From the NCBI GenBank assembly GCA_025358925.1, contig JANYHT010000050.1, forward strand, positions 1 through 64,000: a DNA stretch of 64,000 bases. Direction: 5' to 3'. The notes under the pieces were generated by a model. It had not been told where the DNA came from. It saw only the letters and a list, made by a program, of their open reading frames with translations, and did no database searches. Position 1 is the first letter of the stretch, and each line of letters opens with the position of its first letter. Below are positions 1,908 through 22,597 of the stretch, piece by piece. The position numbers were made by a program, and so were the translations under genes. The DNA is from Gemmatimonadaceae bacterium. GTDB taxonomy: Bacteria > Gemmatimonadota > Gemmatimonadetes > Gemmatimonadales > Gemmatimonadaceae.

Positions 1908-1909
1908 AT

Positions 1910-2458: not shown

Positions 2459-2587
2459 CCGTCGCACACGGCGCCGCCGGCAGGATTGCGCTTTGTTGCA
2501 CCCGTCGACCATGCTATCTGGACGTTTTCATGGCTATACAGAGACAAGAAAAGGAAAAATCTTCAGGCCACGGCCAGACGGTTGAAA

Positions 2588-3142
2588 GTGCGTTCCGCGT
2601 CCATTCTTAAACTCAAACTGAGTGCGGTTCGTCTCCATCTCGCCGCTCTGACAGCGCTGACAGTGCTCGCCTTCGCCACGACCGATGCGCAATCGTGCCC
2701 CGTGGCCACGGCACGGCAAACTGACTGGGTGCGTCACGAAAGTGCAGAATTTGGGGTCGCGATATCTGGGCCTCCGTCTTTTGAACAAGTCGACTGGGCC
2801 AGTCGCTCAGATTCGTCGTCTCCCTTATTTTCGCTGTGGCAAGATGCTGTCACAACGGTGGACTTTGTGGGTCCGACGGATCGGAGGGCCGTGAACATTA
2901 TCGCCGTCACGGGTTCTTCGTGCCTGATGAAAACCGCGGCAGGTAGCTTCCGGCTGAAAATGTATCGGCACATCGGACGTCAATACAACGGACGCCACAC
3001 TACGTACTTCGACGCGGGCGGGGAGATCAAGCTGCCTGGGCGTCGTCCAATGTTCGTGAAATTGACGGCGCATGACAGCGTGACCCTGCTAGGAAATCTG
3101 CAGATGCTCCAAACACTCAAGTTGCTTAAGCCAAATCCTTGA
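2588..3142 (+). CDS. Exported protein of unknown function, copy 2 of a tandem pair
   Basis: This is the paralogue of the gene at 1910. The frame is open from an ATG at 2486, but alignment places the GTG at 2588 opposite the first copy's ATG (shared pattern S..ILKL...LHLA). That gives a 184-residue protein with a signal peptide ending near TTDAQS. The mature parts are nearly colinear, with shared WVRHESAEFGVAISGP, VDWASRSD, YNGR.TTYF.AGGE and LQMLQTLKLLKPN. DNA identity is essentially complete around 2042-2090 and 2727-2775, so the duplication is recent or kept alike by conversion. Function is unknown. The 75 bases between this stop and the convergent kinase gene hold no clear terminator. Confidence 0.68.
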   Translation: MRSASILKLKLSAVRLHLAALTALTVLAFATTDAQSCPVATARQTDWVRHESAEFGVAISGPPSFEQVDWASRSDSSSPLFSLWQDAVTTVDFVGPTDRRAVNIIAVTGSSCLMKTAAGSFRLKMYRHIGRQYNGRHTTYFDAGGEIKLPGRRPMFVKLTAHDSVTLLGNLQMLQTLKLLKPNP

Positions 3143-6471: not shown

Positions 6472-7314
6472 TTAGCGTTTGCGACGGCGGCGCACGACAG
6501 CTGCCGTAACACCAAGTCCCAACGCAACAAGTGCGAGCGACGCTGGCTCTGGCACGGTAGCGAAATCCAGCGCAATGACCGCGTCGTTAAAGTCGCCGTC
6601 GCTCACCCAACGATTGTCTTCAAATCCCAACACGGCATTCGCGCCGGTGCCGTCAAAGTATCCGCGACCAGGATTGTAAACCGACGTCCAGAACGCGGGT
6701 GAAGCCGCGCGTAAACCGCCCGAGAGCGCATCACTGACCGGCGCGGTACCACCCAAAAACAAGTTGGCAAAGCCTAGCTGTGGAGGATCGCCGACAATGC
6801 CATCATATCGTCCGACCGCATTGCGGCCTAACCCGTATCCGGAATAGAACCAATCCGTTTGATGCGTACCGTTGAAATTATCCGTGTTGACGCGCAGTCC
6901 GAACACCAATTCCTGCGACGCGGAGTACACGCCAGGCAGCGCGATCCACGGAGCTGGCGAATCAATAATACTCGAGCCGGCACCTTCTCCCTTGCCGCCA
7001 ATCAGCGTGTAGTCTGCCGCGTTTGCGAGTGGGTTTGCCACGTTGAACCCGCTATTGAAAAAGCCTTGGAAAAAGAAGAAATCACTCTTGAAATACGCAA
7101 TTCCACCAAGGTACCGAGCTGCGGCAACGACGGGCGTTGCTCCGCTGCCAACGCCGACGGCTTGCCCCGTGACGGTGGTCGACGCCACCGTGGACGGGAT
7201 AAAGCACTGCCCGGCAGTCGCCTGAGCGGGAGTACACGTCTGCGCGGAAACAACGGTCGGCGCGGATAGCGCCGCAGCGAATGCGCAGAAGAACAGGCGG
7301 GTGTGTCGTGGCAT
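6472..7314 (-). CDS. PEP-CTERM sorting-signal exported protein
   Basis: A 280-residue protein with a signal peptide (about residues 1-24, ending VVSAQ) and a C-terminal PEP-CTERM tripartite signal: VPEPASLALVALGLG, hydrophobic span, then RRRRKR. Such proteins are cut and transferred by an exosortase and are usually tied to extracellular polysaccharide production. The middle part is rich in Gly, Asn, Ser and aromatic residues, and has DNRWVSDGDFNDAV near the end, reminiscent of DUF4114-like regions; no catalytic motif is seen. No exosortase gene lies in this window. A sigma-54 type promoter (7393-7409) precedes it. It shares the block between rpsG and fusA with glycosyltransferases. Confidence 0.88.
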   Translation of the reverse strand: MPRHTRLFFCAFAAALSAPTVVSAQTCTPAQATAGQCFIPSTVASTTVTGQAVGVGSGATPVVAAARYLGGIAYFKSDFFFFQGFFNSGFNVANPLANAADYTLIGGKGEGAGSSIIDSPAPWIALPGVYSASQELVFGLRVNTDNFNGTHQTDWFYSGYGLGRNAVGRYDGIVGDPPQLGFANLFLGGTAPVSDALSGGLRAASPAFWTSVYNPGRGYFDGTGANAVLGFEDNRWVSDGDFNDAVIALDFATVPEPASLALVALGLGVTAAVVRRRRKR

Positions 7315-7560: not shown

Positions 7561-9450
7561 TTAAAACACGGGTAGACATGGAGTGGCGGTGCTATCGGAT
7601 GATGTACGAACAATTCGTGACGCCGTGACCTCGTCGACAATGCGGTTCGCAACGCCAAGGAGGCGAACACGCACCACGTGTGCGCACCGTTGAGCGCCTT
7701 CACCGCCGAGAATGACGCGTCGAGAAAAACGCCCAGTGCGCAGATCGGGTGTGATCAGGGGGCCTTGCTGATACCAACGGTCGGTAAACACGTCGACTTG
7801 CAGCATCGCGCCCAGCGGCGACCGATCAACATGCCCCGTCACGTCTACCGTCGGACGCGGCCCCGCTACAATCACGGTATCTCCAGTTTTCGGCGTGTCC
7901 ACGACGAGCACCGGCGCATCGGGCGCACGACTGACGGCGGGAAACACGCGTTCGTAAATCACCGCGTCTTCACCGGTGTTGGGTTGCAGCGCGCGATTCC
8001 GTTCGACGTAGCGCATGCTGACTCTTGGTTCAATGGCGCGCTCGAGCGCGAGTGCACTCGAAGACGTTGTGCCATCAAAGACGATATAGTCAAACCATCC
8101 ATCAGCCACCGCCTGCGCATATGCGGCCGGACCCATCTTATTGCCGTACTGAAAGAAATACTGGTCGACGATGTGATCGCTCGGGAGCAAGTCACGCAAC
8201 ACATACCGCACCGCAGCGTCATCGACGAGTACACGTTGGCCAGACTGTACCCGTGCCTGTAAGAACTCCGATACGACGCCGGCATTGGGCCACAAAAACG
8301 GCAGCCCGCCACTGTTGGCCAGCAAACCTCTGCGGCCAAATCCAAAGATCAGGCCAGCCACAATAAGTAGGCACGCAGACGTCGGCACGGGTTGGCTTCG
8401 CATCAAGCGATCCGCCAATGACACCGCGCCCGCTGCGGTGGCAGGAATCAGAAAGGCGAGCGCATACACGGCGTGCTTCCACGTGTGATAGTCGAGACGA
8501 CGCGCCACATGCAGGGCGGAGAACGTCGCGGCGCCGACAAAGAGCGCTGCGATGATGATGCGTTCACGACGGCCACCGCGAAATACCGCCACCAACGCAA
8601 GCACAACACACAACCAGACATCGAGCCGATGCCTTACGTAAATGGTCCACATTTGATCAGTCGGCGCTCGAAATGCATTGAAGCCGGCCACAAATATTAA
8701 CAACGCACGGATCGTATCGAGATAGATGACCGCATACGTCGTCACTAGGATCGAGAGCAGCACGGCGAAGCCAAGTCCGCGCTTGCGATCAAGCAACACG
8801 GCGAGAATGCACACTGGTGGAAAAAAAGCAGCGAGGGGATGCTTGACCAAAAAGCAGCCAAAGAAACACAGGGCCGATCCGATCCAGTCGCGCCACTCGC
8901 CACGCTGCCAACCGCGAACGAATAAGAGCAATGCGAACATCAAGAGCGGTACACCTGCGGCGTCGTGTGTCGCGATGCGCGACGTCAGAATTGCCGGTGA
9001 GCTCACGGCAAATAGCAGTGCCGACGCAAGACCAATGCGATCACCAAACAATCGGCGCGCGAACAGATACATGCCCAGCACGGCCAGCGTACCAAGCGTC
9101 GCGGACATCAATCGCACACCAACAATTCCGCCGCTGAAATCCGCCAACGCCGTGGCGACGGGCCACAAGTACCAACCAAATGCGGTGCGCATGTAGATCG
9201 ACACATCCGGTGCGTGCGCAAGCACACTCCGGCCCATCAGGATCATGAAACTCTCATCTTCAAATGGTGAATTAAATCGTGGATTCCACGCGCGCATAAC
9301 AAACGCGACCGTGAGTACGAGCAACAACCAAATGCGGCGCGGACTCGCATCCACGTCGCGCTGGGCCACCAGTGACAGCGGGGTAAGCGCCGCCGCGCGA
9401 GCGCGTGCGCGCCCGCGCCTGCCATCCCCGCTCATATTACCACTCATCAT
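7561..9450 (-). CDS. GT-C family (GT39/ArnT-like) membrane glycosyltransferase
   Basis: A 629-residue protein. After a charged Arg/Ala-rich N-terminus there is a first membrane span (RRIWLLLVLTVAFVMRAW) and then the loop SPFEDESF. This acidic pair in the first periplasmic loop is the hallmark of GT-C enzymes that take sugar from a polyprenyl phosphate. About ten more hydrophobic spans follow up to residue 370, then a soluble C-terminal part of about 250 residues. It acts at the outer face of the inner membrane; donor and acceptor are unknown. The start overlaps the stop of the methyltransferase gene upstream by four bases (9447-9450). The UbiA-like gene nearby could supply the lipid-linked donor. 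Confidence 0.82.
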   Translation of the reverse strand: MMSGNMSGDGRRGRARARAAALTPLSLVAQRDVDASPRRIWLLLVLTVAFVMRAWNPRFNSPFEDESFMILMGRSVLAHAPDVSIYMRTAFGWYLWPVATALADFSGGIVGVRLMSATLGTLAVLGMYLFARRLFGDRIGLASALLFAVSSPAILTSRIATHDAAGVPLLMFALLLFVRGWQRGEWRDWIGSALCFFGCFLVKHPLAAFFPPVCILAVLLDRKRGLGFAVLLSILVTTYAVIYLDTIRALLIFVAGFNAFRAPTDQMWTIYVRHRLDVWLCVVLALVAVFRGGRRERIIIAALFVGAATFSALHVARRLDYHTWKHAVYALAFLIPATAAGAVSLADRLMRSQPVPTSACLLIVAGLIFGFGRRGLLANSGGLPFLWPNAGVVSEFLQARVQSGQRVLVDDAAVRYVLRDLLPSDHIVDQYFFQYGNKMGPAAYAQAVADGWFDYIVFDGTTSSSALALERAIEPRVSMRYVERNRALQPNTGEDAVIYERVFPAVSRAPDAPVLVVDTPKTGDTVIVAGPRPTVDVTGHVDRSPLGAMLQVDVFTDRWYQQGPLITPDLRTGRFSRRVILGGEGAQRCAHVVRVRLLGVANRIVDEVTASRIVRTSSDSTATPCLPVF

Positions 9451-10070
9451 ACGCCACTCTTCTCGAACACGAGCAGATCGTGCGCATACCAGTACCGGCG
9501 CACGTGCTCACGATGCATGAGCACAAAACCGCGCGACTCGGCGACTTGCGCCACGACGTCAGGCGCGACGTACTTGATCCACTGTCGCGCCAGCAGCAAG
9601 TCATGCGCACGATTGGCGACCGCGTGAAGGATGGGTCGCGCGGCCATGTCTTTGTACACGAAGCGTCCGCCGGGTCGTACGCGATCCAACACGGCCAAAA
9701 GAAAACTGTTCTGCGCGCGTGGCGCGATATGATGCAAGACATCGATCAATAGCACGCAGTCGAACAATGTCGTCGGCCAATCGACCGTGCTGCTCGTGTG
9801 CCGAAATTCGAGGTGTGTTGGCAGCACACGTTTAGCCATACGTAAGGCGCGTTGCAACGCGTTCGCATCTGCATCGATGCCGACGGCGTTCGCGATCCGA
9901 CCACTACGCGCCAACAACCCTAGAACGAGTCCTGCGCCGCAACCAATATCGAGCACGTTGGCGTTCGCCGGAATGCACTGTAGCACGCGCTCAAACGGAC
10001 AGATGACCGGCCGCACTGACTGCAACCGTGCGCGCCATCCCGGCTCTTCGGCAAACAATGCCTTAGCCAT
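9447..10070 (-). CDS. SAM-dependent class I methyltransferase
   Basis: A 207-residue protein if it starts at the ATG at 10070. The frame stays open to a GTG at 10148, giving 233 residues; neither start has a clear ribosome site. Motif I is VLDIGCGAGLVLGLLA, followed by the acidic end of strand 2 (GIDADANAL) and motif IV-like LIDVLHHIAP, then RPGGRFVYKDM. This is the Methyltransf_11/25 type. The C-terminal part has HREHVRRYWYAHDLLVFEK. The target is unknown; it may be a lipid or sugar intermediate, since the gene overlaps a GT-C glycosyltransferase and diverges from a UbiA-type prenyltransferase. Confidence 0.83.
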   Translation of the reverse strand: MAKALFAEEPGWRARLQSVRPVICPFERVLQCIPANANVLDIGCGAGLVLGLLARSGRIANAVGIDADANALQRALRMAKRVLPTHLEFRHTSSTVDWPTTLFDCVLLIDVLHHIAPRAQNSFLLAVLDRVRPGGRFVYKDMAARPILHAVANRAHDLLLARQWIKYVAPDVVAQVAESRGFVLMHREHVRRYWYAHDLLVFEKSGV

Positions 10071-10230
10071 GGATGTGACAGTGGCGCGCGAGGGCGAGAA
10101 CGAGAGATCCAGAGGCCGCGACGTATGGAGAATTAAACAAAAGACCACGCTATACTTAACCGCAGCGCGCCATCGGAAACCATGTGCTATTTACGAAACG
10201 GAAACGCCGAGCGATGCTTGCCCGTCAGCT

Positions 10231-11214
10231 ATGACGAGCCACGTCCGCGTTCGTCTCCCGTTTTCACTGCCCTTGATGACTGTTTCGGCCGAGAGTCACC
10301 GCACCGATCGTTCCACCCGCACGCTGTCGCGTACAGGCGCGGCGGCGCTGCGCGCGATGCGGCCCGCGCATTGGGCGAAGAATGGTCTCGTTCTGGTACC
10401 GACACTCACGGCGCATGCGTGGCGTGACCCACGCGTGTTCGTGCACGCCTTCTTGGTCACCGTCGCCTTTTCGTTGATTGCCTCGGCGATATATCTCGTC
10501 AACGACGTGCTCGATGCTCCGCATGATCGACAGCACGCGGTCAAACGCGATCGTCCAATCGCGTCGGGAGCGTTGGCGCCGTCGCTCGCCGTCGGTCTTG
10601 CCTTCGTGCTCGTAGTGATGGCGGGGTTGGCGATTCGCGACGTCGCGTCACCTGTACGCATCGTTCTGCTGGCGTACGGTGTCCTCATGCTTGCGTATTC
10701 GCTGTTGTTAAAGCGAGTGCTCGCGCTTGATGTGGTCGCATTGGCGATTGGCTACACACTGCGCTTAGCGGCGGGCGCCGCTGGCATCGACGTCAAACTG
10801 TCACCGTGGCTCGCTGCCTTCTCGTTATTTGTTTTTGCGAGCTTAGCACTGCTGAAACGCGCTGCGGAGTTACGAGCGCTGGTGCAACGCAAGTATCCAG
10901 CCGCGCTGCCCGCGCCCGGGCGTGCGTACGCGAGTGCCGATTTGCCAATCGTCTCCATGCTTGGTGCATCGTCGGCGATGGTGGCAGTGATGGTCCTCGC
11001 CTTGTACGTCACAAGTCCGGAAGTGCGAGTTCTCTACCGAGCGCCGGAAGTATTGTGGCTGCTCTGTCCAACGGTACTTTTTTGGCTGGTGCGACTGTGG
11101 GTTTTAGCGCTGCGCGGTGTCGTGCGTGAAGATCCGGTATTGTTCGCGCTGCGTGACGTCCCAAGTCTGTCTGTACTCGCGGCATGCGTGGGAGTTGTGC
11201 TGCTTGCACTCTAA
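10231..11214 (+). CDS. UbiA-family prenyltransferase, DPPR-synthase-like
   Basis: About 327 residues from the ATG at 10231; the ATG at 10276 is also possible and neither has a strong ribosome site. The protein has around nine membrane spans and the UbiA motif NDVLDAPHDRQH, followed by KRDRPIASGALAP. This closely resembles the decaprenyl-phosphate phosphoribosyltransferase branch (mycobacterial Rv3806c), with YTLRLAAGAAG as the second conserved loop. That branch moves phosphoribose to a polyprenyl phosphate, making donors for GT-C arabinosyl- or ribosyltransferases. Two GT-C genes flank it, which fits. The stop lies inside the next gene's start region, so the two are likely coupled. Confidence 0.82.
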   Translation: MTSHVRVRLPFSLPLMTVSAESHRTDRSTRTLSRTGAAALRAMRPAHWAKNGLVLVPTLTAHAWRDPRVFVHAFLVTVAFSLIASAIYLVNDVLDAPHDRQHAVKRDRPIASGALAPSLAVGLAFVLVVMAGLAIRDVASPVRIVLLAYGVLMLAYSLLLKRVLALDVVALAIGYTLRLAAGAAGIDVKLSPWLAAFSLFVFASLALLKRAAELRALVQRKYPAALPAPGRAYASADLPIVSMLGASSAMVAVMVLALYVTSPEVRVLYRAPEVLWLLCPTVLFWLVRLWVLALRGVVREDPVLFALRDVPSLSVLAACVGVVLLAL

Positions 11215-12757
11215 GCTTCCCGCAACAGACGCGCATATTGGACTTCGGCGCACGGCAACGGCAGTCACGCTCGGCGTGATCGCGACGGTGCAGTGGTCGT
11301 TATCGCACGCGCTGCAAACCGACGTGTTCGTTGACGAAGCGACATATGCCGTGGCTGGCCGAATGATCCACGAAGCGGGCGGCGTAGGCAGCGCTGGCCT
11401 GCCCGCGTTCGCGACCTATTTCTCCGGCGCACCACATTTGTATCCGTGGCTTGCTGCGGCGGCAAATCGCGCGGGAGGACTGGAAGGGGCCAGGCTAACA
11501 AGTTTTGTCTGCATGGTCATCGCAATGCTGGCGGTCTACGTCACGTCGCGTCAACTGTTTCGTGATCGACTGAGCGGCGTGTGTGCGGCTGCAATTTTTG
11601 CCATTCAGGCGCCCGTCTTATTTTTGGCGCGATTCGCCACCTTCGACGCCCCTGCCGTCGCGCTGCTTGCTGTTGCGATTGCTGCCTGCGCATTCGGTAC
11701 CAATCGAGAGCGTCACGCTGCAACGCTTGCGTGGCTAACGGTCGCCGGCGCGTGCATAGGTGTGGCCTCCGTCGTGAAGTACGCGTCCCTGCTGTATGTG
11801 CCGGCAGTCGGGCTCTTCGCCGTTGCACTCGAACCTCGACGATGGCTCACCCGCAGTCTCGCGGTGGGAATCAGTGCAGTTGTCGTTATCGTATTCTTGG
11901 TGTCGCTTGGCAATGCACGTGAGATTGCAACGGGATTTCTCACGACGACGCTGACTCGTGTGGCGCCAAGCGGTGGTCGCGCCGATGATATTCTTGCGTT
12001 CGCGGCGCAACTGGGAGGCGTCGTTGGTCTCTTGGCAATCCCCACGCTCGTCGCACCGAGGCCAGTCTCACGATGGGTGGTGGCGACGCTGTTGCTGTTC
12101 GCGCTGGCCGCTCCGCTCAATCACGCGCGCCTCCACGAGTTTGTGTCGCTCCACAAGCATGTGGCGTTTTCGCTGGTGTTGCTCGCACCATTGGCTGGAC
12201 GCGCCGTCGCTATCAGTGCGCGATGGATGCACTTTCAATTTGAGGAGCGCAGTGCCGCTCTCGCCCTTGCAGCAGCGTCCGTATCGCTCGTGCTCCTCGT
12301 GCGAGGAAACCTGATTCCGTCAATCAATGTTGCACACCGTTTGTTTACCTATTGGCCTAATCTCACGCGTCGCGCGTACCTCGCGCTCCGTCCCGTCGCT
12401 TCGCCAGAGTCGCGCGTGCTTAGCGAAGAACCCGACATTGGTTTCTACTATTTAGGCGACAAGATTTCGTACGCGCACTGGACGCACCCGTATTTCTTCG
12501 ACTACAACGGTGCCGTCGCGAAGGGTGTATCGGACGACAGTATTCCGCGCCGCGCCATTCGCGATGGATATTTTACGGCTGTCGTGTTGCGCTATGGACC
12601 ACAGCGCGCGTGGGCGCACCGCATCGAAGAAGAGCTGCTGCGATCCCAGCCACGCTATCGCCTTGCCGTGCGATTGCCCTTCCAGCTCGCGGATGGTCCG
12701 AGTGTCTACGAAGTGTGGGTGCGATCAGACGCGGTCGGGAGCGACGTGGTGCGCTAA
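11204..12757 (+). CDS. GT-C family membrane glycosyltransferase
   Basis: A polytopic protein of about 517 residues from a TTG at 11204, which overlaps the UbiA stop and follows GGGAG. The frame is open from 11117, but the first residues there look non-coding. The first span is followed by TDVFVDEATYAV, with the Asp-Glu pair usual in the first periplasmic loop of GT-C enzymes. About ten further spans follow and a C-terminal soluble part of about 130 residues. It resembles PMT/ArnT-type transferases that use polyprenyl-phosphate sugars. Its TAA overlaps the stop codon of the convergent gene by two bases, with no terminator between. Confidence 0.78.
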   Translation: MHSKLPATDAHIGLRRTATAVTLGVIATVQWSLSHALQTDVFVDEATYAVAGRMIHEAGGVGSAGLPAFATYFSGAPHLYPWLAAAANRAGGLEGARLTSFVCMVIAMLAVYVTSRQLFRDRLSGVCAAAIFAIQAPVLFLARFATFDAPAVALLAVAIAACAFGTNRERHAATLAWLTVAGACIGVASVVKYASLLYVPAVGLFAVALEPRRWLTRSLAVGISAVVVIVFLVSLGNAREIATGFLTTTLTRVAPSGGRADDILAFAAQLGGVVGLLAIPTLVAPRPVSRWVVATLLLFALAAPLNHARLHEFVSLHKHVAFSLVLLAPLAGRAVAISARWMHFQFEERSAALALAAASVSLVLLVRGNLIPSINVAHRLFTYWPNLTRRAYLALRPVASPESRVLSEEPDIGFYYLGDKISYAHWTHPYFFDYNGAVAKGVSDDSIPRRAIRDGYFTAVVLRYGPQRAWAHRIEEELLRSQPRYRLAVRLPFQLADGPSVYEVWVRSDAVGSDVVR

Positions 12758-14700
12758 AATGCGTGTCGCAATCCCGCACGAAACTGTCGCAAACGGAATC
12801 CGCCGAGGTTGTCGAGATACAGGTAACCGAGCGATCCGTCCCATCCCTGATGACCGACGATGCGCGCTTCACCGCCCGCCGCAATGTTCGTCGCACTAAA
12901 TCCCGCTTGCAAACCAGAGATCTGTCGTCCAAGCGCACCGTCGGCTCGCACCGTAAGCCGTCCGGTCACAGGCACACTGAGGCCGAGTGATGTGTAGGCA
13001 TTGGCAAAGTTTTTCGGACTCCAATAACCACCGACCTCGTTCGCCGGCGCAAATGCGGCAGATCGGTTTGCATCAAACGTAAAGCCGAGATACGACGCAC
13101 CCACACCGACTTCGACACGCAGACCGCCAAACGGAATGGGTCTAATCAGCGAAGCGTTGGCTTCGCGTTTGATGTTGGTCCGAAGTGCGCTCGCTGTATA
13201 CGTGCCAAGGCTCACCGTTGACGCGAATACGAGGCCGTTCGGCAATTCAGGAAGCCGAAGCGCCAGCGTACCAGTGTTCGCACGTACCGGTCCCACCGAG
13301 CGACCACCATCGGTTTGCCCACTCGCTGCTCGCCGCGAGTCTTCGACGGCCGCACGTCGCGCAATAACGCGCAGCGTCGCGCTGTGGCCGAGTTGTGCTT
13401 CGCCTTCGGCAGATGCACTCCACGCGTCCGCCGCATTCGGATAGCGCTCTACACCAACTTCGGCGCGAGCACTCCGCAGGCCCGGCAACTTCCCGTCTAC
13501 GGCAACGCCGAGCGCATTCGATGTAAAGCTGCCACTTGGCGCACGAAACCACGTGGGTCGACCGCTAATAGAAACACGCATGACGGTGGACAGCGGATAT
13601 GATATCGTGGCCACGACACGATTTAATGTGAGGCCGAGCGATGTATGCGTTGAGACGGCATCGACACTCACTGCTGCCGCCGATCCGCGACGTACCCAAT
13701 CGGCCGCGCCTGGACCAGCGCCTTCCGGAAGGGTACCAGCAAGCGCGTGTGCTTCTCGCAGATGGCCCGACGCAAGGAGTGCGTACGCCAATTGCTCGTT
13801 GAGTTTTGGGTCGGAGGGCGTACGCGCAATCAAATCTCGTAGCACGCTGACCGCTTCTGCCGGACGACCCACTTGCATAAGCAAAGTGCCACGTGAGCGC
13901 ACCAGCGCCGTATCATTCGGCGCCGCGACCAAGAGCGAATCAGCGAGCGCGAGCGCGGCGTTTGAACGTCCGGTCCACGTGAGCACGTTCAAACGCCCAA
14001 GCAATGCGCGCGAATTGCGCGCATCGCGTTCAGCGACACGCGCATACAACTGCATTGCTTCCGGGCGTGTATCGGCAACCCATGAAAGCGCATCTGCATA
14101 GTCGACCGTCGCTGAGAGATCAGTCGGTCGATCGCGGACGAGCGTTGCATAGCGTCGCAGTCCTTCGCCGCGCGTTGACGGATTCCACGATAGCGCGGAC
14201 GCGAGCGCGTGACGGAGCGCGGGATCGTCCGGCGTCCGACGTTCGAGTGATCGGAGCACCGCGATGCCTTCACCGCGTGTTGGCGGATTCCACGTGAGCG
14301 CCTGACCGAACGTGAGTAGCAATCCAAGCGAGTCTGGAGCGAACGCGACTGCCTTTCGAAGATGTATCACACCGGAGTCGGATTGTCCGGACCACGACAA
14401 CCATTGCCCGAGATCGCGTTCGAGCGAGAAATCAGAGACACCCAGCGCCGAAAGACGTCGTGCGAGCGGCAACGCTTCTGTCCAACGTCCATTCGACGAC
14501 AGTAGTCCAGACAGCTCGCGTAGTGCCGGCCGCGCGCTCGAGTCGGCGCGTATAGCGGCCTGATACAGCGTGATTGCTTGCGGTGTGGCGCCGAGTGCTG
14601 CGGCAGCGCGCGCAGAATCGAGTACGCTGCTGCCTTGAGCGCGCGCGTATCCGGAGCTGCCAAGAGCTGCAACGAGAAGAAACGCGCGGTGAATTTTCAC
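12754..14700 (-). CDS. TPR protein with C-terminal outer-membrane beta-barrel (BcsC/YaiO-like)
   Basis: The GTG at 14700 overlaps the upstream TGA (GTGA) and gives a 648-residue protein with a clean signal peptide (MKIHRAFLLVAALGSSGYARAQ). Residues about 25-330 hold some nine TPR-like repeats (AxxLYxxAI, LALADSLL, PNDTALV patterns). From about 340 on, alternating hydrophobic residues and Gly/aromatic turns suggest a beta-barrel, ending FRAGLRHAF with the terminal Phe typical of outer-membrane proteins. The layout is that of BcsC and PgaA: periplasmic TPR scaffold plus export pore. As last gene of an operon with a BcsA-like synthase it is the probable exporter of the glycan. Its stop overlaps that of the convergent gene. 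Confidence 0.84.
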   Translation of the reverse strand: MKIHRAFLLVAALGSSGYARAQGSSVLDSARAAAALGATPQAITLYQAAIRADSSARPALRELSGLLSSNGRWTEALPLARRLSALGVSDFSLERDLGQWLSWSGQSDSGVIHLRKAVAFAPDSLGLLLTFGQALTWNPPTRGEGIAVLRSLERRTPDDPALRHALASALSWNPSTRGEGLRRYATLVRDRPTDLSATVDYADALSWVADTRPEAMQLYARVAERDARNSRALLGRLNVLTWTGRSNAALALADSLLVAAPNDTALVRSRGTLLMQVGRPAEAVSVLRDLIARTPSDPKLNEQLAYALLASGHLREAHALAGTLPEGAGPGAADWVRRGSAAAVSVDAVSTHTSLGLTLNRVVATISYPLSTVMRVSISGRPTWFRAPSGSFTSNALGVAVDGKLPGLRSARAEVGVERYPNAADAWSASAEGEAQLGHSATLRVIARRAAVEDSRRAASGQTDGGRSVGPVRANTGTLALRLPELPNGLVFASTVSLGTYTASALRTNIKREANASLIRPIPFGGLRVEVGVGASYLGFTFDANRSAAFAPANEVGGYWSPKNFANAYTSLGLSVPVTGRLTVRADGALGRQISGLQAGFSATNIAAGGEARIVGHQGWDGSLGYLYLDNLGGFRLRQFRAGLRHAF

Positions 14701-16586
14701 GCCTGACTCTGCGTTGTCATCGCGAGAAACTTTCCATGTCGCGGTGCCACTTCCCAAAACATATGACGCATAATGGCGTCACCAGCGTCGGTATCGCTAA
14801 GCAGAAAGCGTACACCGTTCGCGTGACGCGAGCGACCGTTGACCTGAAATGCTTCGGTCCAAGCAATCTGTCCGAACGCCGTAACGGTACGTTCAGGCAG
14901 CGTGAGCTTCACGGTGACGTACGTACCGATGTCTAACCGTTCATCGAGTGTAAAAGACACACCCTGTCGATTCAAATTGCGCGCGAACGTTGCGTCTTGC
15001 ACAACAATCGAGCCATCGGCACTAAGCCGCTGCAGTTCGAAGCGCGCTTCAGTATCGAGATCTTGTGGAAAGCGGTACGTAGATCGCAGTTCGCGTCGAT
15101 CAAAAATACGCGCGACTCCCGGTGCGGTGACGACGAAAAAATATCCGCCAAACATTGCTGTAACGAGATACGCCCAAAGTTCGCCCTGATCGCGCGTTTC
15201 ATTGGCCTGCACGACTGCGACCACGGTTGAGGTGTAAACCAAAAACAGTAGGAGCACATACGGCCACGCTTGCGAAAGTTCAGCGGCTGCCGCGCGAGAT
15301 TTCGACGTGACTTGGAAGGCAGTGTCGCGACGAAAATAGCCTGACATCGCCGTCAGCGTCGCGTGAATTTTTACGAAATTGTAGCGCTCCATCAGAAACG
15401 GCGTGCGCCAGTTCCTCGCCAACACACTCGCGGCGGTAAAATTGGCAATGAGAAACGGCACATAATATCTGACGTACGCGAGTGGGTCGGTACGCAACGG
15501 GAAAATACCGGTCAGCGATGCAAAGATCACGGTCAGCACGCTTAACAGTCGAACCCAACTGAACACAATGTTGTACTCGTACGACGCCAGATAGCTGAGA
15601 CGTTGCGCGAGGCTCAGTCCGGGGCCGAGCAGCGGACGCTCAAGTCGCAAGACTTGGGTCGAGCCAACACCCCAACGTCGCCACTGATTCACGTAACCGG
15701 AAAACGTTTGTGGTGCGAGTCCGCGGGCAACGCTGCCGTTGAAGTAAAGCACGCGCCACCCCGCCTTCTGCAGCCGCAGACCGGTATGCAGATCTTCCGT
15801 GATGGTGCCGGTCGCAAACCCACCAATGGCGTCCAGCGCGGATCGTCGGAGCATAGCCGGACTGCCGCAGTAGATGGTGGCGTTCCAGTAATCTTTCGCT
15901 GGTTGAATGACATTGAAAAAGAGCTCCTGCATCTGCCAGCCGGCGCGATGTCGCCAGTCCATTTCATGTTGGAACGAGTCGAGATTGTAGCAGTCTTGAT
16001 TGGCTTGCACGATGCCCACGGGCGCTTCGCGAAAGAAACCAATCATCTCGTCAATCAGCGACGGGATGGCCACATGATCTGCATCAAGCGTTACAATAAA
16101 TTCTGCGCTACTATGACGCAGCCCGTTGTTCAGATTGCCGGCTTTCGCGTGCGTATTGTCGAGGCGGCCGAGGTATTCGCAACCAAACTCCGCTGCCAAA
16201 CTGGCCACGCCCGCACGATTTCCGTCATCGAGCACCAAGGTGCGATGCGGATAGCGAATGGCGACCGCACAGGCGATTGTGTCACGCAGAATATCCAACG
16301 GCTCGTTGTACGTCGCGATAAAAACATCAACGCGACGACCAGGTAGTACAGATGGCACCCGATAGAACCGTTGCCACCACGTGCCGAGTAGGAGCCCGAC
16401 CGTAGAAACAAAGGCAAGAAATTCCGTGACAAAAAAGATTATGAAAAACCAATGTGCTGACGGGTTGTCGGTATGAAACCATCGCCACCACAGATAGCGT
16501 CCACCGGTCACGATGGTGACGACCGCAAAAACACGACGGAGCCAAAGTCGGGACGCTTTCGTTGGCTGTTCAACGAGCGAACTCAC
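14697..16586 (-). CDS. BcsA-like family 2 glycosyltransferase with PilZ domain
   Basis: A 629-residue processive beta-glycan synthase. Two spans at about 14-70 precede the GT-A domain, with DDG (Asp120-Asp121), DAD (168-170), IYCGSPAMLRR, TED (263-265) and QWRRW (301-305): all residues needed by cellulose synthase. Further spans lie at about 340-490. A PilZ domain (about 497-610) has RSTYR (501-505) for the RxxxR site and NLNRQG (537-542) in place of the usual [DN]xSxxG, so c-di-GMP binding is likely but the second motif is altered. The product may be cellulose or a related glycan. Start and stop overlap the neighbouring genes by four bases. No bcsB, bcsZ or bcsD homologue is seen nearby. Confidence 0.88.
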   Translation of the reverse strand: MSSLVEQPTKASRLWLRRVFAVVTIVTGGRYLWWRWFHTDNPSAHWFFIIFFVTEFLAFVSTVGLLLGTWWQRFYRVPSVLPGRRVDVFIATYNEPLDILRDTIACAVAIRYPHRTLVLDDGNRAGVASLAAEFGCEYLGRLDNTHAKAGNLNNGLRHSSAEFIVTLDADHVAIPSLIDEMIGFFREAPVGIVQANQDCYNLDSFQHEMDWRHRAGWQMQELFFNVIQPAKDYWNATIYCGSPAMLRRSALDAIGGFATGTITEDLHTGLRLQKAGWRVLYFNGSVARGLAPQTFSGYVNQWRRWGVGSTQVLRLERPLLGPGLSLAQRLSYLASYEYNIVFSWVRLLSVLTVIFASLTGIFPLRTDPLAYVRYYVPFLIANFTAASVLARNWRTPFLMERYNFVKIHATLTAMSGYFRRDTAFQVTSKSRAAAAELSQAWPYVLLLFLVYTSTVVAVVQANETRDQGELWAYLVTAMFGGYFFVVTAPGVARIFDRRELRSTYRFPQDLDTEARFELQRLSADGSIVVQDATFARNLNRQGVSFTLDERLDIGTYVTVKLTLPERTVTAFGQIAWTEAFQVNGRSRHANGVRFLLSDTDAGDAIMRHMFWEVAPRHGKFLAMTTQSQA

Positions 16587-17812
16587 CGCGACGACCCGTC
16601 TCTCGCCAGTTCCGTGTTGAAGTACGGAAGCAGCGCATTGACCGCGACGATGTAATCATCTGCGGTGAGCTGCGGACCCGTGCGCACACGCACGCGATGT
16701 CGACAATCGAACTTGCGCATCGAGGCTATCTCCGGTGCCAGCGCCTCGAGCACCGTTGAGAGCGGACCGGTCACGGTGCGTACGCGGTAGCGATCAGCCG
16801 CGAGAATAGTCACTTCCGCAACGGCGCCCGAATCGACTTTCAGTTCGATGCATGTTGGCGTTTGGTTGGAGCGTCCTCGGCCCGAACCCGCTCCCAATGC
16901 AATCGCACCAATCGCGCGTGTGGAACGTCGACGACCGTCGGCACCGCTACTACCGTTCGCACCAGTGCCGGGTCCGGTTCCCGCTGCGCTGTTCGCACTC
17001 GCAACGCCACCTTCGCGAGTCGAATCGAGTCGTGAGGTCGCTAAAAGTTGGAGTGCGCGCCGAAGCTCGGCAGGCGTATATGATGACGCACCCGCGCCTG
17101 CACCCGTGCCGGCCGTTGCGCTGAGCGATCGCGGAGTCAGCGGCGCCGAAGCGATCGTTGCCACCGACGCCGCACCCGGAATGGCGCTCGACATCGCGTC
17201 ACGCGTTGCACGCAGCAACGTGGTTGGCGTCAACGCTTGCGCCAGCGACGGTGCGATAGAGTCCAATCGCAGTCGCACGGAATCTGTTTGACGCGCGGCC
17301 GTCGCGAGGGCAGTGGACGCGTTCGTACGCGAAAGTGACGACGTCGCAATCGTGCGTTCTACGTCGGTAATTTGCGCGGCGAGTGACGTGGCAAGTGGTG
17401 ATACCCCTGCGCGACCGGATTGCGTGAGCGGAACATCCGACGTGCCTTTGGTGCCGAGCATCAGGGAGCCAGCCGATGACTTCAGTGCGAGGAGCGAGTC
17501 GCGCTGTCGCTGCAACAGGGCAATCTGTGCGGCAAGCGCACTGTCCCGCGCGTAGGCGTTGCGCAACGCGCGTTCGAGCGAATCGAGCCGCTGCGCCAAC
17601 GCCAGCAATTTCGCGACACGTGGATTTTCCTTTGATAGCGAGTCGGGTACCGCGGCGACGCGTATTGGCGCGGCGGTACCGGCTTGTTTCAGTACGGACA
17701 ATCCAAAAATCAGCAGTGCGATGAACAGCGCGAGTTCGGCTTCCGTAAACCCGATAATCGACTGTCCGCCCTTTAATCGGCCCCGCCTACGCTGGCCGGT
17801 TGGCGCAGTCAC
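16583..17812 (-). CDS. Single-span membrane protein with coiled coil, possible MotB/ExbD-like partner
   Basis: A 409-residue protein. A basic N-terminus leads to one membrane span at about residues 21-42 (GFTEAELALFIALLIFG) with Glu24 and Glu26 at its cytoplasmic edge. This recalls the pattern of MotB and ZorB, whose span starts with an acidic ion-binding residue after an aromatic. A coiled coil follows (about 65-115), then a long Ala/Ser/Thr/Gly-rich segment. The last 90 residues look folded, with two cysteines (PTCIELKVDSG and FDCRHRVRVRTG). No database family is recognised by eye. It overlaps by four bases both the MotA/ExbB-like gene upstream and the synthase downstream. Confidence 0.75.
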   Translation of the reverse strand: MTAPTGQRRRGRLKGGQSIIGFTEAELALFIALLIFGLSVLKQAGTAAPIRVAAVPDSLSKENPRVAKLLALAQRLDSLERALRNAYARDSALAAQIALLQRQRDSLLALKSSAGSLMLGTKGTSDVPLTQSGRAGVSPLATSLAAQITDVERTIATSSLSRTNASTALATAARQTDSVRLRLDSIAPSLAQALTPTTLLRATRDAMSSAIPGAASVATIASAPLTPRSLSATAGTGAGAGASSYTPAELRRALQLLATSRLDSTREGGVASANSAAGTGPGTGANGSSGADGRRRSTRAIGAIALGAGSGRGRSNQTPTCIELKVDSGAVAEVTILAADRYRVRTVTGPLSTVLEALAPEIASMRKFDCRHRVRVRTGPQLTADDYIVAVNALLPYFNTELARDGSSR

Positions 17813-18609
17813 GTGTCGTCGCCATGGTTCGGAATGGTGCGCGTCGGGCCGACATAGGGCGTAGCGCGCGGCGTAGACGAGATTGGCGTCGCTGCGACGG
17901 GAGTGCCTGCAACCGTGGCGTTTCCGGTCTCTTCGTGACGTGCGGTAAAGCCCATCGCAGGTCGGTGTTCGTCAATGGCGCCGATGCTCACGTCCTGCGC
18001 TGGCGCATCGCGTGTGCTTGGCGTGCCGTGGAGCGCAGTTATTGGCGCAAGCGCGCTTTTCCCCAGTTCGTCGAGTCGGGCGAGAAAGCGTTGCTGGGTT
18101 GCTTCAAGTTCTTTCGATTGTTTGGCCCGTTCGTCGGACATTTCGCGAAAAAACTGTTGACGCGCGAGCTCGAACGCGACGGCGTGGCTCGTGACGGCGT
18201 TCGCCAGCGAGGCCAAGCGATCGTCTTCGGGTGGCGACTCATCGCGGACGAGTCCGAGAAGGGCCTGTCGGCTGAACAACCCGACGATCGTGGTGAGTAC
18301 CGCACCACCAACTTCTTGCGTCATCAGCTCGGGATTGCGACTGAACAGGGCAAAATTGTACGAGACATCATTAAAAATTTTGAAAAGCCCGAACATGGTC
18401 AGTAAGAAGCCGAGAAAGTACGGGGAATCTTTGAGGGAATCACTGTCCTGTTGTCCGACGGCCCCGCGATTCGCATACAAGTACAATGTGTATAGAACGA
18501 TTGGGACCGAGGGAAGGTACGGTTTCCCGATGTCCGTGAAGAGGGACCATGAGCTGGCGGCGAGCGCTACCGTGAAAGCAAAAAACGCTCGATTTGGGAA
18601 TTCGTTCAC
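17809..18609 (-). CDS. Four-span membrane protein resembling MotA/TolQ/ExbB/ZorA
   Basis: A 266-residue protein, first gene of the operon. Four hydrophobic spans are visible at about 8-26, 31-47, 64-82 and 96-116. The last two read YFLGFLLTMFGLFKIF and EVGGAVLTTIVGLFSRQALL, similar to the third and fourth helices of MotA/TolQ/ExbB/ZorA stators (pore-lining small and Thr residues, then Gly-Leu-aromatic-Ser). A cytoplasmic coiled coil (about 150-195) and a disordered tail follow. The fold assignment is inference from pattern. If right, it and the next gene form an ion-driven motor pair. Overlap by four bases (ATGA) with the next gene supports equal translation. Confidence 0.7.
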   Translation of the reverse strand: MNEFPNRAFFAFTVALAASSWSLFTDIGKPYLPSVPIVLYTLYLYANRGAVGQQDSDSLKDSPYFLGFLLTMFGLFKIFNDVSYNFALFSRNPELMTQEVGGAVLTTIVGLFSRQALLGLVRDESPPEDDRLASLANAVTSHAVAFELARQQFFREMSDERAKQSKELEATQQRFLARLDELGKSALAPITALHGTPSTRDAPAQDVSIGAIDEHRPAMGFTARHEETGNATVAGTPVAATPISSTPRATPYVGPTRTIPNHGDDT

Positions 18610-18682
18610 GCGGCGCCGGCGCGGGTGATGGGTCGCTCGTCGTTTTGGAGAGCTCGCCGTTGGAAGGACGCGCTGTGCGGAA

Positions 18683-18705
18683 CGACTGTCACAAACTGAC
18701 AGTCG
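18683..18705. promoter_or_regulatory. Perfect 9-bp inverted repeat upstream of the motor/synthase operon
   Basis: CGACTGTCA and TGACAGTCG are perfect inverted halves around CAAAC, 74-96 bases upstream of the first start codon of the operon at 18609. No T-run follows on either strand, so an operator for a dimeric regulator is more likely than a terminator. No promoter match could be fixed beside it. Confidence 0.45.
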
Positions 18706-19063
18706 ACGCCGCTATGCCGTCCGCGTCCAAGTTCATCGTGCTTTCTCTCGTACGCAACCCATCTGCAAGTAGAATTCACGAGTACTCTGGTGATCTACGT
18801 CACGTACTGTTTGTGAGATTTGTCGCTGTGGGTAAGCCTCTGCATTGTTGCGTGTGCGGCGACCGCGCCCATTGACTGCGGAGGGCAATGCATTACCTTC
18901 TCTTGGCTAGGGGTGGCCGGAAATCTCAGTCATCCTTGCTCCTGGGTTGGAGTTGCTGTTGCTGGACACAATTTGAACGTCGAAGCAGTCGTCGCGCACC
19001 CGCGCGGCTTCGACGCGCCATGGGTCCCCGGTCGCGCTCCAGCGGCGGCCGTACCCGGCGAGG
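18706..19063. other. Non-coding region between divergent operon and fusA
   Basis: The whole gap from 18610 to 19234 has no convincing gene: the frames there lack ribosome sites and known motifs. It must carry the promoters for the minus-strand operon and for fusA. TGACTG (about 18872) can pair with CAGTCA (about 18934), enclosing smaller hairpins, so a structured leader RNA ahead of the terminator at 19064 is possible. I could not match it to a known riboswitch, 6S, SRP, RNase P or tmRNA. Confidence 0.35.
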
Positions 19064-19114
19064 GCGGATGGACATCGGTTTCCTTCGGGAAGCGCCCGAT
19101 CCATCCGCATTTTT
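19064..19114 (+). terminator. Terminator-like hairpin in the fusA leader
   Basis: GCGGATGG (19064-19071) pairs with CCATCCGC (19101-19108). Inside it ATCGG pairs with CCGAT, and the tip is TTCC-TTCG-GGAA, a stable UUCG tetraloop. ATTTTT follows at once. This is the shape of an intrinsic terminator on the plus strand, but no plus-strand gene lies upstream. It is therefore either an attenuator in the fusA-tuf leader or the end of an unannotated small RNA. Confidence 0.7.
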
Positions 19115-19234
19115 GCTGATACGAACTTGCACCCGCGACCGGTTGCGAATTGCTGTGAGAGTGCCTTGGCACTTGAACCAGCGTTCTGACTGCGGCGCAG
19201 GATCCTCGAAGTAGAACGTTTCCGAGCACCGCAC

Positions 19235-21355
19235 ATGCCGCGTCTCACCCCGCTTCAGCAGTACCGCAACATCGGCATCATGGCCCACATTGATGCCGGC
19301 AAAACCACCACGACTGAGCGTATTCTCTATTACACGGGAAAGTCGCACAAGATTGGTGAAGTACATGATGGCGCGGCGACGATGGATTGGATGGAGCAGG
19401 AGCAAGAGCGCGGCATCACGATCACGTCGGCCGCGACGACCTGCTTTTGGCAGCGCCACGGGCAGAGCGACGTGAAGGGCGCTGGTCCGGAGTATCGTAT
19501 CAACATCATCGACACGCCGGGTCACGTGGACTTCACCGTCGAAGTCGAGCGTTCATTGCGTGTGCTGGATGGCGCGGTCACACTGCTCGATTCGGTGGCT
19601 GGTGTTGAGCCGCAAACGGAAACGGTGTGGCGCCAAGCAGATCGTTACGGCGTGCCGCGCATGATTTTCGCGAACAAAATGGATCGTGTCGGCGCAAATT
19701 TCGAGCGCTGCGTGGCCATGATTCATGATCGTCTGTCGAAGAGCGCGCAGCCGTTGCAGCTCCCGGTCGGATCAGGTGAGTTGTTTACGGGCCATCTCGA
19801 TATCATCGAACGCAAGCAGTATATCTTCGACGAAGTGACGCTCGGCAAAACCTTTACGGTGACGGATATTCCGCCTGAGTTTCATGACGCGGTAGAAGTC
19901 GCGCGTCACAAGCTCATCGACACCGTGGTGGAATACGACGAAGCGTTGATGGAAAAGTATTTGGCGGGCGAAGAGTTGTCGGTCGACGAAATTCGGAGCG
20001 CGATTCGTACGGCAACGTGCGCGGGCAAGTTCATTCCGATTTTGTGCGGCGCCTCTTTTAAGAACAAAGGCGTGCAGGCGTTGCTCGACGCGGTGATCGA
20101 CTTTTTACCGGCCCCGCTGGATGTGCCGGCCATCAAGGGTCATTTGCCACAGCACGACGAAACGTTTGTTGAGTGTCCGGTGACGGACGATGCCGCTTTT
20201 GCAGCATTGGCGTTCAAGATTGCCACCGACCCGTTCGTTGGAAAGCTCACGTTCTTCCGTGTGTATTCTGGTGTGTTGGCGTCAGGTAGCTACGTTTACA
20301 ACAGCACGAAAGACAAGCGTGAGCGCGTCGGTCGTTTGTTGCAGATGCATGCAAACAAGCGCGAAGAGATCGAGGAGGTGCGCGCCGGCGACATTGCGGC
20401 AGCAATCGGTCTGAAGGACACGCGCACCGGCGACACGCTGTGCACCGAAGATGCGCCGATCATTCTGGAAGCGATGAAGTTTCCGAACCCCGTCATCGAC
20501 GTCGCGATCGAGCCGAAGACGAAAGCCGACCAAGACAAGTTGGCCATCGCGTTGCAGAAGTTAGCCGAAGAAGATCCGACGTTCCGTGTGCGGTCTGATG
20601 CGGAAACGGGACAGACCATCATTGCTGGTATGGGTGAGCTCCATTTGGAGATCATTGTCGACCGCATGATGCGCGAGTTTAAGGTTGACGCGAACGTCGG
20701 TCGTCCGCAGGTCGCCTATCGCGAGACCATTCGCAAGCGCGTCGAAAAAATCGAAGGCAAGTTTATTCGTCAGTCCGGCGGTAAGGGTCAGTATGGCCAC
20801 GTCGTCATCAACATGGAGCCCAGCGAGCAGGGGCAGGGTTTCGTGTTCGAGGATAAGGTGGTTGGTGGCGTCATTCCGCGAGAGTTTATCGGACCGACGG
20901 AAGCAGGTATCAAGGAAGCGCTCGAAACCGGCGTGCTGGCCGGTTATCCGGTGGTGGACATCAAGGTGCAGCTTATTTACGGCTCGTACCATGACGTTGA
21001 CTCGTCGGAAATGGCGTTCAAAATCGCTGGTTCAATGGCGTTCAAGGAAGCTTGCCGACAGGCCAGCCCTTGTTTGCTTGAGCCGGTGATGAAGGTCGAG
21101 GTTGTCAGCCCGGAAGCGTACATGGGCGACGTCCTCGGCGACCTCTCCTCGCGTCGCGGCAAGATCGGCGGCATGACGCAGCGCGGTGAGGCGCAGGTGA
21201 TCTCGGCCACTGTGCCCCTCGCCGAGATGTTCGGTTACTCGACCAAACTGCGCAGCATGTCGCAGGGAAGGGCGGTCTACTCGATGGAGTTTTCGCATTA
21301 CGAGGAAGTGCCGAAGTCGAAGGCCGAAGAGATCATCAGCAAGGTGAAGGCGTAA
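19235..21355 (+). CDS. fusA: Translation elongation factor G
   Basis: EF-G of 706 residues, full length. The P-loop is [15 protein letters not shown], switch [14 protein letters not shown]3 [12 protein letters not shown] and G4 NKMD. Domains II-V follow, with domain IV containing [12 protein letters not shown]. The GTPase moves tRNAs and mRNA after peptide bond formation. The start has no strong ribosome site (CCGAGCACCGCAC before ATG). It is followed 39 bases later by tuf, in the normal order, but is cut off from rpsG by about 12.8 kb. Switch I is ordinary here, unlike in the EF-Tu next door. Confidence 0.98.
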
Positions 21356-21394
21356 GCCTCACCCACTCATTCACTACCCAACACACATCGGACC

Positions 21395-22597
<1,203 letters not shown>

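What the first reader, a model, noticed from the sequence alone, without database searches (positions are those of the whole stretch)
14697..18609. A motor-like MotA/ExbB plus single-span pair leads a BcsA-like synthase operon
Four minus-strand genes overlap by exactly four bases each. The first encodes a four-span protein whose last two spans look like MotA/TolQ/ZorA; the second has one span beginning GFTEAELALFIALLIFG, with an acidic residue where MotB and ZorB have their ion-binding Asp, then coiled coil and a periplasmic domain. Third is a complete GT2 synthase with PilZ domain, fourth a TPR-barrel exporter. The pair takes the place of bcsB-type genes. I infer an ion-driven motor acting in glycan synthesis or export, which to my knowledge is not a described arrangement.
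Basis: inference. Interest (0 to 1): 0.75.

Follow-up and report, generated by a model that had tools for sequence, protein, structure and literature searches.

The report
Possible ion-driven motor for glycan export
An uncultured bacterium carries a pair of membrane proteins distantly related to the ion-driven motors of flagella and nutrient uptake, locked into one operon with the machine that makes and exports a cellulose-like sugar chain; if the pair works as a motor there, it would be a new job for this kind of motor.

Summary
Four minus-strand genes overlap by GTGA at three junctions: a MotA/ExbB-like protein (A), a single-span protein (B), a GT2 beta-glucan-type synthase (C) and a BcsC-like TPR-barrel exporter (D). 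A falls below Pfam's cut-off, but profile-profile comparison with ExbB/TolQ, an unbiased profile scan whose inspected hits all read as ExbB/TolQ, and conserved Thr positions show that it is a distant relative of the MotA/TolQ/ExbB superfamily. B has the expected partner layout; Glu26, not Glu24, is the membrane acid kept across divergent relatives. Its C-terminal domain resembles TolR/ExbD weakly; it has no OmpA-like domain. Four of 30 genomes of the genus carry the pair, and exactly those four carry this synthase, in the same order and under purifying selection; none has BcsB. Synthase relatives at 35% identity elsewhere in the phylum lack the pair. I conclude: a divergent ion-driven-motor pair recruited to a synthase-dependent exopolysaccharide locus. 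That it is a motor is likely; that it drives or gates export is plausible but unproven. The PilZ domain is atypical and the polymer unknown. The open papers searched describe no such arrangement.

The parts
17809..18609 (-). Gene A: divergent MotA/TolQ/ExbB-like membrane protein, 266 aa, four predicted spans then a cytoplasmic coiled coil and disordered tail
18268..18426 (-). Gene A residues 62-114: core SPYFLGFLLTMFGLFKIF...GGAVLTTIVGLFSR that aligns with the last two spans of ExbB/TolQ; T71 (18397-18399) and T106/T107 (18289-18294) are invariant in nine divergent relatives
   Evidence: hhalign; invariant columns
16583..17812 (-). Gene B: single-span partner, 409 aa (basic N-terminal end, one span, coiled coil, periplasmic domain)
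17687..17758 (-). Gene B residues 19-42: transmembrane span IIGFTEAELALFIALLIFG; Glu26 (codon 17735-17737) is the acid kept in distant partners (FSLAEIS, LTLAETF)
17231..17623 (-). Gene B residues 64-194: long coiled coil, modelled as two helices of about 56 residues
16607..16864 (-). Gene B residues 317-402: C-terminal periplasmic domain (QTPTCIEL ... CR ... NTEL), TolR/ExbD-like topology, weak support
14697..16586 (-). Gene C: processive GT2 synthase of the BcsA/BgsA type, all catalytic motifs present
14772..15098 (-). Gene C residues 497-605: PilZ-like C-terminal region, RxxxR present, second motif NxNxxG
12754..14700 (-). Gene D: BcsC-like exporter, TPR repeats plus outer-membrane barrel; best start GTG at 14700
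11117..12757 (+). Flanking PMT_2-type glycosyltransferase; a PMT_2-type gene lies between C and D on the opposite strand in G023 (Pfam) and, by sequence, in G025
9787..11214 (+). Flanking UbiA-type prenyltransferase; a UbiA gene also lies in the G023 locus (the true start is probably downstream of the listed ORF start)
9447..10148 (-). Flanking methyltransferase; a similar ORF lies in the G023 locus
7561..9450 (-). Second flanking PMT_2-type glycosyltransferase; similar ORFs in the G025 and G023 loci

Best explanation
A and B are a divergent inner-membrane ion-driven motor pair of the MotAB/ExbBD/TolQR/ZorAB kind: A the ring subunit, B the axle, with Glu26 as ion-binding acid and a coiled coil plus small periplasmic domain reaching outward. 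The pair is a dedicated part of a synthase-dependent exopolysaccharide machine in which C polymerises and extrudes a beta-glucan-like chain through the inner membrane and D carries it through the outer membrane. The most likely role, inferred, is that ion flow through A-B moves B in the periplasm so that it acts on the TPR exporter D, or on the chain between C and D, to open the exporter or help the chain along, as ExbBD-TonB energises outer-membrane transporters and GldLM powers type IX secretion. Shown here: homology of A, conserved acid, gene order, co-occurrence, selection, no BcsB found. Inferred: assembly, ion flow, contact with C or D, effect on export.
For: A against ExbB/TolQ: hhalign E 3.8e-5, prob 71 with Pfam-found ExbB/MotA; E 1.2e-7, prob 94 with 37 ExbB/TolQ, and E 1.2e-5, prob 81 with the four window-type sequences alone; no column shuffle or windowed shuffle (100 each) reached these scores. 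The A profile run over 125 Cloacimonadota genomes found, besides its own member, hits at E 1e-5 to 1e-3; all 29 inspected read as ExbB/TolQ and nearly all have an ExbD-like gene next to them. Pfam MotA_ExbB matches the same segment, sub-threshold, in three divergent subfamilies. Foldseek's first seven hits for A are ExbB or MotA chains, though at E 0.18-0.33. Thr71, Thr106, Thr107 invariant in nine relatives; a Ser/Thr ring around a partner acid is the ion site in ZorAB and MotAB (PMC11890865). B: Glu26 in FTEAEL invariant and matched by AE in distant partners; TolR periplasmic domain among the Foldseek hits; hhalign with ExbD E 0.0036, 0 of 200 shuffles. Linkage: A and B in 4 of 30 same-genus genomes, synthase in exactly those 4, same order; purifying selection; no BcsB.
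Against: A does not reach Pfam's cut-off (12.7 against 22.9 bits), and its structural matches tie with unrelated helical bundles. B has no recognised ExbD, MotB or OmpA domain, and the ExbD resemblance of its C-terminal domain weakens without the Cloacimonadota sequence (E 0.049, 5 of 200 shuffles reach it). BcsA couples elongation directly to translocation through its own channel (PMC11379886), so no motor is needed at that step. The cluster was found in one genus only; conserved gene order does not prove a physical machine.
Confidence: 0.5

Rival explanations
1. The pair is an ion-driven motor, but its work is movement or surface positioning (a gliding-type or adhesin-moving motor), and the polysaccharide is its slime or adhesive; export itself is not energised by it.
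For: Related motors power gliding (GldLM, PMC8986121; review PMC13104615). In Komagataeibacter, motA or motB overexpression raised motility and cellulose yield together (PMC6570709).
Against: No gliding genes were seen among the genes read around the locus (not searched genome-wide); B lies immediately upstream of the synthase in all four copies.
Confidence: 0.13
2. The pair forms a channel or sensor that regulates the synthase (reports ion gradient or wall state to C through the cytoplasmic coiled coil of A) and does no mechanical work, as proposed for ZorAB signalling in phage defence.
For: A carries a cytoplasmic coiled coil and tail, as ZorA does; C has an atypical PilZ-like end, so another regulator would be useful.
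Against: The end of the tail is poorly conserved; B lacks an OmpA-type wall-binding domain.
Confidence: 0.17
3. A and B are a structural co-polymerase scaffold replacing BcsB or BgsB: they keep the old fold but no longer conduct ions; B's coiled coil and periplasmic domain simply bridge synthase and exporter.
For: No BcsB in the genomes; the nearest annotated synthase relatives in plasmids follow a periplasmic adaptor gene (PMC9495663); BcsB is needed for BcsA activity and contacts BcsC TPRs (PMC11379886).
Against: The acid and the Thr positions that serve ion conduction elsewhere are kept across divergent subfamilies in unrelated contexts, which a mere scaffold would not need. B is not HlyD-like.
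Confidence: 0.15
4. The resemblance of A to MotA/ExbB is convergent membrane-helix sequence and the pair has some unrelated function.
For: Sub-threshold Pfam score and weak fold matches.
Against: Profile searches found ExbB/TolQ rather than other membrane proteins; none of 100 full or 100 windowed shuffles reached the score in any of the four comparisons.
Confidence: 0.05

Closest known systems
MotA/TolQ/ExbB superfamily with MotB/ExbD/TolR partners (Ton, Tol, flagellar, AglRQS, GldLM motors)
   Same: A aligns with the two core spans including the conserved Thr positions; B is a single-span partner with a conserved acid at the inner part of the span; genes adjacent
   Different: A is below the Pfam threshold and lacks the large cytoplasmic domain between spans; the acid is Glu, not Asp; B has a long coiled coil and no recognised ExbD or OmpA domain; the context is a polysaccharide operon
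ZorAB of Zorya anti-phage defence
   Same: Spans without a large cytoplasmic domain followed by a cytoplasmic coiled coil; a ZorAB chain (8vvi_C) is among the structural matches of A, Z 8.5, rmsd 3.2, 96 residues, tied with unrelated bundles
   Different: No ZorB OmpA-like domain, no PADLOC hit, no Zorya effector gene recognised nearby
Bacterial cellulose secretion (BcsA-BcsB-BcsC)
   Same: Synthase with all GT2 motifs and BcsC-like exporter
   Different: No BcsB in the genomes; atypical PilZ; TIGR03030 at 317.5 of a 699.1 cut-off; motor-like pair in front
Mixed-linkage beta-glucan synthase BgsA with BgsB (rhizobia)
   Same: Synthase 36% identical to the S. meliloti pSymB glycosyltransferase preceded by a periplasmic adaptor gene, which I take to be bgsBA; no BcsB
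   Different: BgsB is HlyD-like (PMC9495663); B is not
MotAB and cellulose in Komagataeibacter hansenii (PMC6570709)
   Same: A motor pair of this superfamily affects bacterial cellulose yield and ribbon form
   Different: There motA-motB are MotAB-type genes studied for motility, by overexpression, and the effect is tied to motility and cell length

Membership tests
MotA/TolQ/ExbB (PF01618) | Reaches Pfam's curated cut-off | tested here: not met
   12.7 bits against 22.9, E 0.11; distant relative L031 E 0.004, also below cut-off
MotA/TolQ/ExbB superfamily | Statistically significant homology over the two core spans | tested here: met
   hhalign E 3.8e-5 and 1.2e-7, shuffles negative; profile scan finds ExbB/TolQ
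MotA/TolQ/ExbB superfamily | Conserved Thr/Ser in the two core spans lining the ion path | tested here: met
   T71, T106, T107 invariant in nine relatives and aligned with ExbB Thr
MotA/TolQ/ExbB superfamily | Pentamer around a dimer, ion conduction | not testable with these tools
   No complex prediction or experiment available
MotB/ExbD/TolR partner | Single N-terminal span with a conserved acid | tested here: met
   Invariant FTEAEL; Glu26 kept in distant partners
ExbD/TolR (PF02472) | ExbD domain by Pfam profile | tested here: not met
   No such hit at E 10
ExbD/TolR | ExbD/TolR periplasmic fold | tested here: inconclusive
   TolR domain 2jwk at Foldseek rank 9, E 0.13, TM 0.60 on target; hhalign E 0.0036 or 0.049 depending on the set
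MotB/ZorB | OmpA-like peptidoglycan-binding domain | tested here: not met
   No such Pfam hit in B
Zorya | ZorA/ZorB profiles and effector genes | tested here: not met
   No PADLOC hit for A or B; neighbours named are glycan and translation genes
Bcs cellulose system | GT2 motifs of BcsA | tested here: met
Bcs cellulose system | PilZ c-di-GMP site | tested here: inconclusive
   RxxxR present, NxNxxG variant, no Pfam PilZ hit
Bcs cellulose system | BcsB present | tested here: not met
   0 of 4 genomes; control genomes ring
Bcs cellulose system | BcsC exporter | tested here: met
   BCSC_C 35.6 bits, cut-off 23.5
Bcs cellulose system | BcsZ cellulase | not tested
   Not searched genome-wide
BgsA-BgsB | HlyD-like partner | tested here: not met
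   No HlyD Pfam hit, no BLASTP similarity to the adaptor

The most novel reading that the evidence does not exclude
A dedicated ion-driven rotary motor of a new subfamily powers or gates the passage of a beta-glucan-like chain from a processive synthase through a TPR-barrel exporter, in a system without BcsB: an energised form of synthase-dependent polysaccharide secretion.
Probability: 0.42. Interest if true: 0.85.

Novelty: new variant of a known kind. Interest (0 to 1): 0.66.

Why it matters
In the best-studied synthase-dependent system, BcsA couples chain growth to transport through the inner membrane; how chains are moved across the periplasm and outer membrane, and whether that step is energised, is open. 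A motor pair wired into such an operon would make the question testable by changing one acid. It also adds a divergent branch, found in at least two phyla and missed by curated profiles, to the ion-driven motors, whose range of jobs is still being charted.

Tried and rejected
Defence system: no PADLOC support for A or B and only noise in PHROGs. Membrane-fusion (HlyD/BgsB) identity of B: rejected. Orthodox MotB/ZorB identity: no OmpA domain. Structure route: A's fold matches are consistent but not significant (Foldseek E 0.18 or worse), and the VIA rows mix ExbB/TolQ/ZorA with unrelated bundles; B's VIA list is filled by coiled coils and says nothing on the C-terminal domain. Search of PDB sequences with the single proteins or the A profile gave nothing useful. 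Viral contigs: no relative. Plasmids: no relative of A; the hits of the Cloacimonadota homologue are coiled-coil matches to phage tail proteins. The first ExbD comparison used a poorly aligned set and failed; redone. Promoter and terminator scan is at chance level; no Rfam family in 9000-22000.

Full report
Setting. The window lies in a 4.0 Mb draft genome.

Observation. Genes A (17809-18609), B (16583-17812), C (14697-16586) and D (12754-14700) follow one another on the minus strand, with three 4-base GTGA overlaps. The finding's interval holds A, B and C; D extends beyond it. The genome has three ordinary MotA_ExbB genes elsewhere, so the pair is an extra one.

Is A a MotA/ExbB relative? Pfam alone says perhaps: 12.7 bits, E 0.11, cut-off 22.9. 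Distant relatives of A were found in other Gemmatimonadota (family f5) and in one Cloacimonadota genome. Members of three subfamilies match the same part of the Pfam model below threshold. A nine-sequence profile compared by hhalign with ExbB/MotA proteins collected independently through Pfam gives E 3.8e-5, probability 71. Against a wider ExbB/TolQ set it gives E 1.2e-7, probability 94, and the four window-type sequences alone give E 1.2e-5, probability 81; none of 100 column shuffles or 100 shuffles within six-column windows, which keep local hydrophobicity, reached these scores. The wider set was partly found with the same profile, so one search is the cleaner number. The same profile run over 125 Cloacimonadota genomes hit 48 genomes; every one of the 29 inspected hits reads as ExbB/TolQ, and nearly all are followed by an ExbD-like gene. 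In the alignment, A's FLGFLLTMFGLFKIF...AVLTTIVGLF lies on LIGFLGTVIGMVKVF...ALLTTIGGLI. D61, S62, Y64, L66, G67, T71, G101, A103, T106, T107, G110 and R114 are among the residues invariant in all nine. AlphaFold gave a moderate model whose best Foldseek hits are ExbB and MotA chains, without significance. I take homology as established and membership in the curated Pfam family as not met.

Is B the partner? B starts inside A's stop codon, is basic before its single span, and has Glu24 and Glu26 in an invariant FTEAEL. In the partners next to distant A relatives the span reads FSLAEIS (Cloacimonadota) and LTLAETF (f5): Glu26 is kept, Glu24 is not. Glu rather than Asp serves in another motor, GldLM, although there the key glutamate (E49) is in the ring subunit GldL (PMC8986121). 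The periplasmic part is a long coiled coil and a small domain of beta-beta-alpha-beta-alpha order. Foldseek lists the TolR periplasmic domain at rank 9 (E 0.13, TM 0.60 on the target); hhalign with ExbD gives E 0.0036 (0 of 200 shuffles) when the Cloacimonadota partner is included, but only 0.049 (5 of 200) without it. Suggestive, not proven.

The synthase and exporter. C has LDDG, TLDAD, TI/VTED and QW(R/K)RW in all four orthologs; TIGR03030 at 317.5 bits against a cut-off of 699.1 says relative, not equivalog. It is 36% identical to a S. meliloti pSymB glycosyltransferase that follows an adaptor-protein gene; I read this as BgsA, the mixed-linkage glucan synthase (inference from gene order and the literature, PMC5567048, PMC9495663). 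Cellulose should therefore not be assumed. The PilZ-like end keeps RxxxR but has NxNxxG, and Pfam does not see it. D is BcsC-like.

Linkage. Among the 30 genomes held for the genus, A was found in 4, B in the same four and C in exactly those four, in the order A-B-C, with D directly after C in the window and G018, and after an opposite-strand glycosyltransferase ORF in G025 and G023. fusA lies divergently next to A in the window and G025, and by its antisense ORF in G023. All four genes are under purifying selection (window against G018: dN/dS 0.16, 0.17, 0.06, 0.09 for A to D). C homologues at about 35% identity in other genera of the phylum have no A or B in the stretches read around them. 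No BcsB was found in the four genomes, while control genomes ring.

Other contexts. In f5 Gemmatimonadota an A-B pair follows two genes without named families; in Cloacimonadota L031 it lies between two small genes of unknown family. The pair thus looks like a motor-like module used in several settings, of which the polysaccharide operon is one.

How it probably works. Shown: homology of A, conserved acid and Thr positions, operon, co-occurrence, selection. Inferred: A makes a ring, B the axle; ions pass at Glu26; B moves or changes shape in the periplasm and acts on D's TPRs or on the chain. Since BcsA couples elongation to translocation through its own channel (PMC11379886), the periplasmic and outer-membrane step is where added energy makes most sense. 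Gating, signalling and scaffold roles remain open, and so does a gliding role.

Literature. Searches of open papers for motors in synthase operons found none; most subscription papers and preprints were not covered. A 2025 survey of MotAB and its non-flagellar homologues has no mention of polysaccharide, cellulose or glycosyl terms, and a survey of exopolysaccharide operons does not mention ExbB. The nearest report is the effect of MotA or MotB overexpression on cellulose in Komagataeibacter.

Verdict. A real, conserved and apparently undescribed arrangement; the superfamily identity of A is well supported, the partner role of B moderately, the function in glycan export plausible.

Noticed in passing
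L109, L111, L113 (family f5 Gemmatimonadota): A conserved four-gene unit: a protein of about 480 aa or more, a ~275 aa protein with LVDPSDSLT...VSDMIQNS, an A-like protein with a long coiled-coil tail and a ~410 aa B-like partner (LTLAETF). No named family for any of them; function unknown.
   Followed up: partly
L031:6673-9525: Cloacimonadota A-B pair, with a 140 aa minimal partner, between two small genes without family; the tail of the A-like protein gives ZorA coiled-coil matches.
   Followed up: partly
L080, L085, L088, L089, L092, L094, L097, L098, L100, L102, L103, L108: Cloacimonadota ExbB-like genes, most of them seen followed by an ExbD-like protein that has Asn (LVPIMNLF, LIPIMNLF) where ExbD has its ion-binding Asp; possibly a non-conducting or differently fuelled ExbBD.
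   Followed up: no
window 6472-7314 (-): Exported protein ending in a PEP-CTERM-like sorting signal (VPEPASLALVALGLGVTAAVVRRRRKR) next to the glycosyltransferase at the edge of the cluster.
   Followed up: no
window 1769-3142 (+): Two neighbouring, similar secreted-type proteins (229 and 218 aa) of unknown family.
   Followed up: no
window 3218-5197 (-): Ser/Thr protein kinase-like protein; a similar kinase ORF also lies near the locus in L016 (16617-18632).
   Followed up: no
L015 11113-12714 (-) and L016 5981-7495 (-): PMT_2-type glycosyltransferase gene on the opposite strand between synthase and exporter in two relatives; outside the operon in the window.
   Followed up: partly
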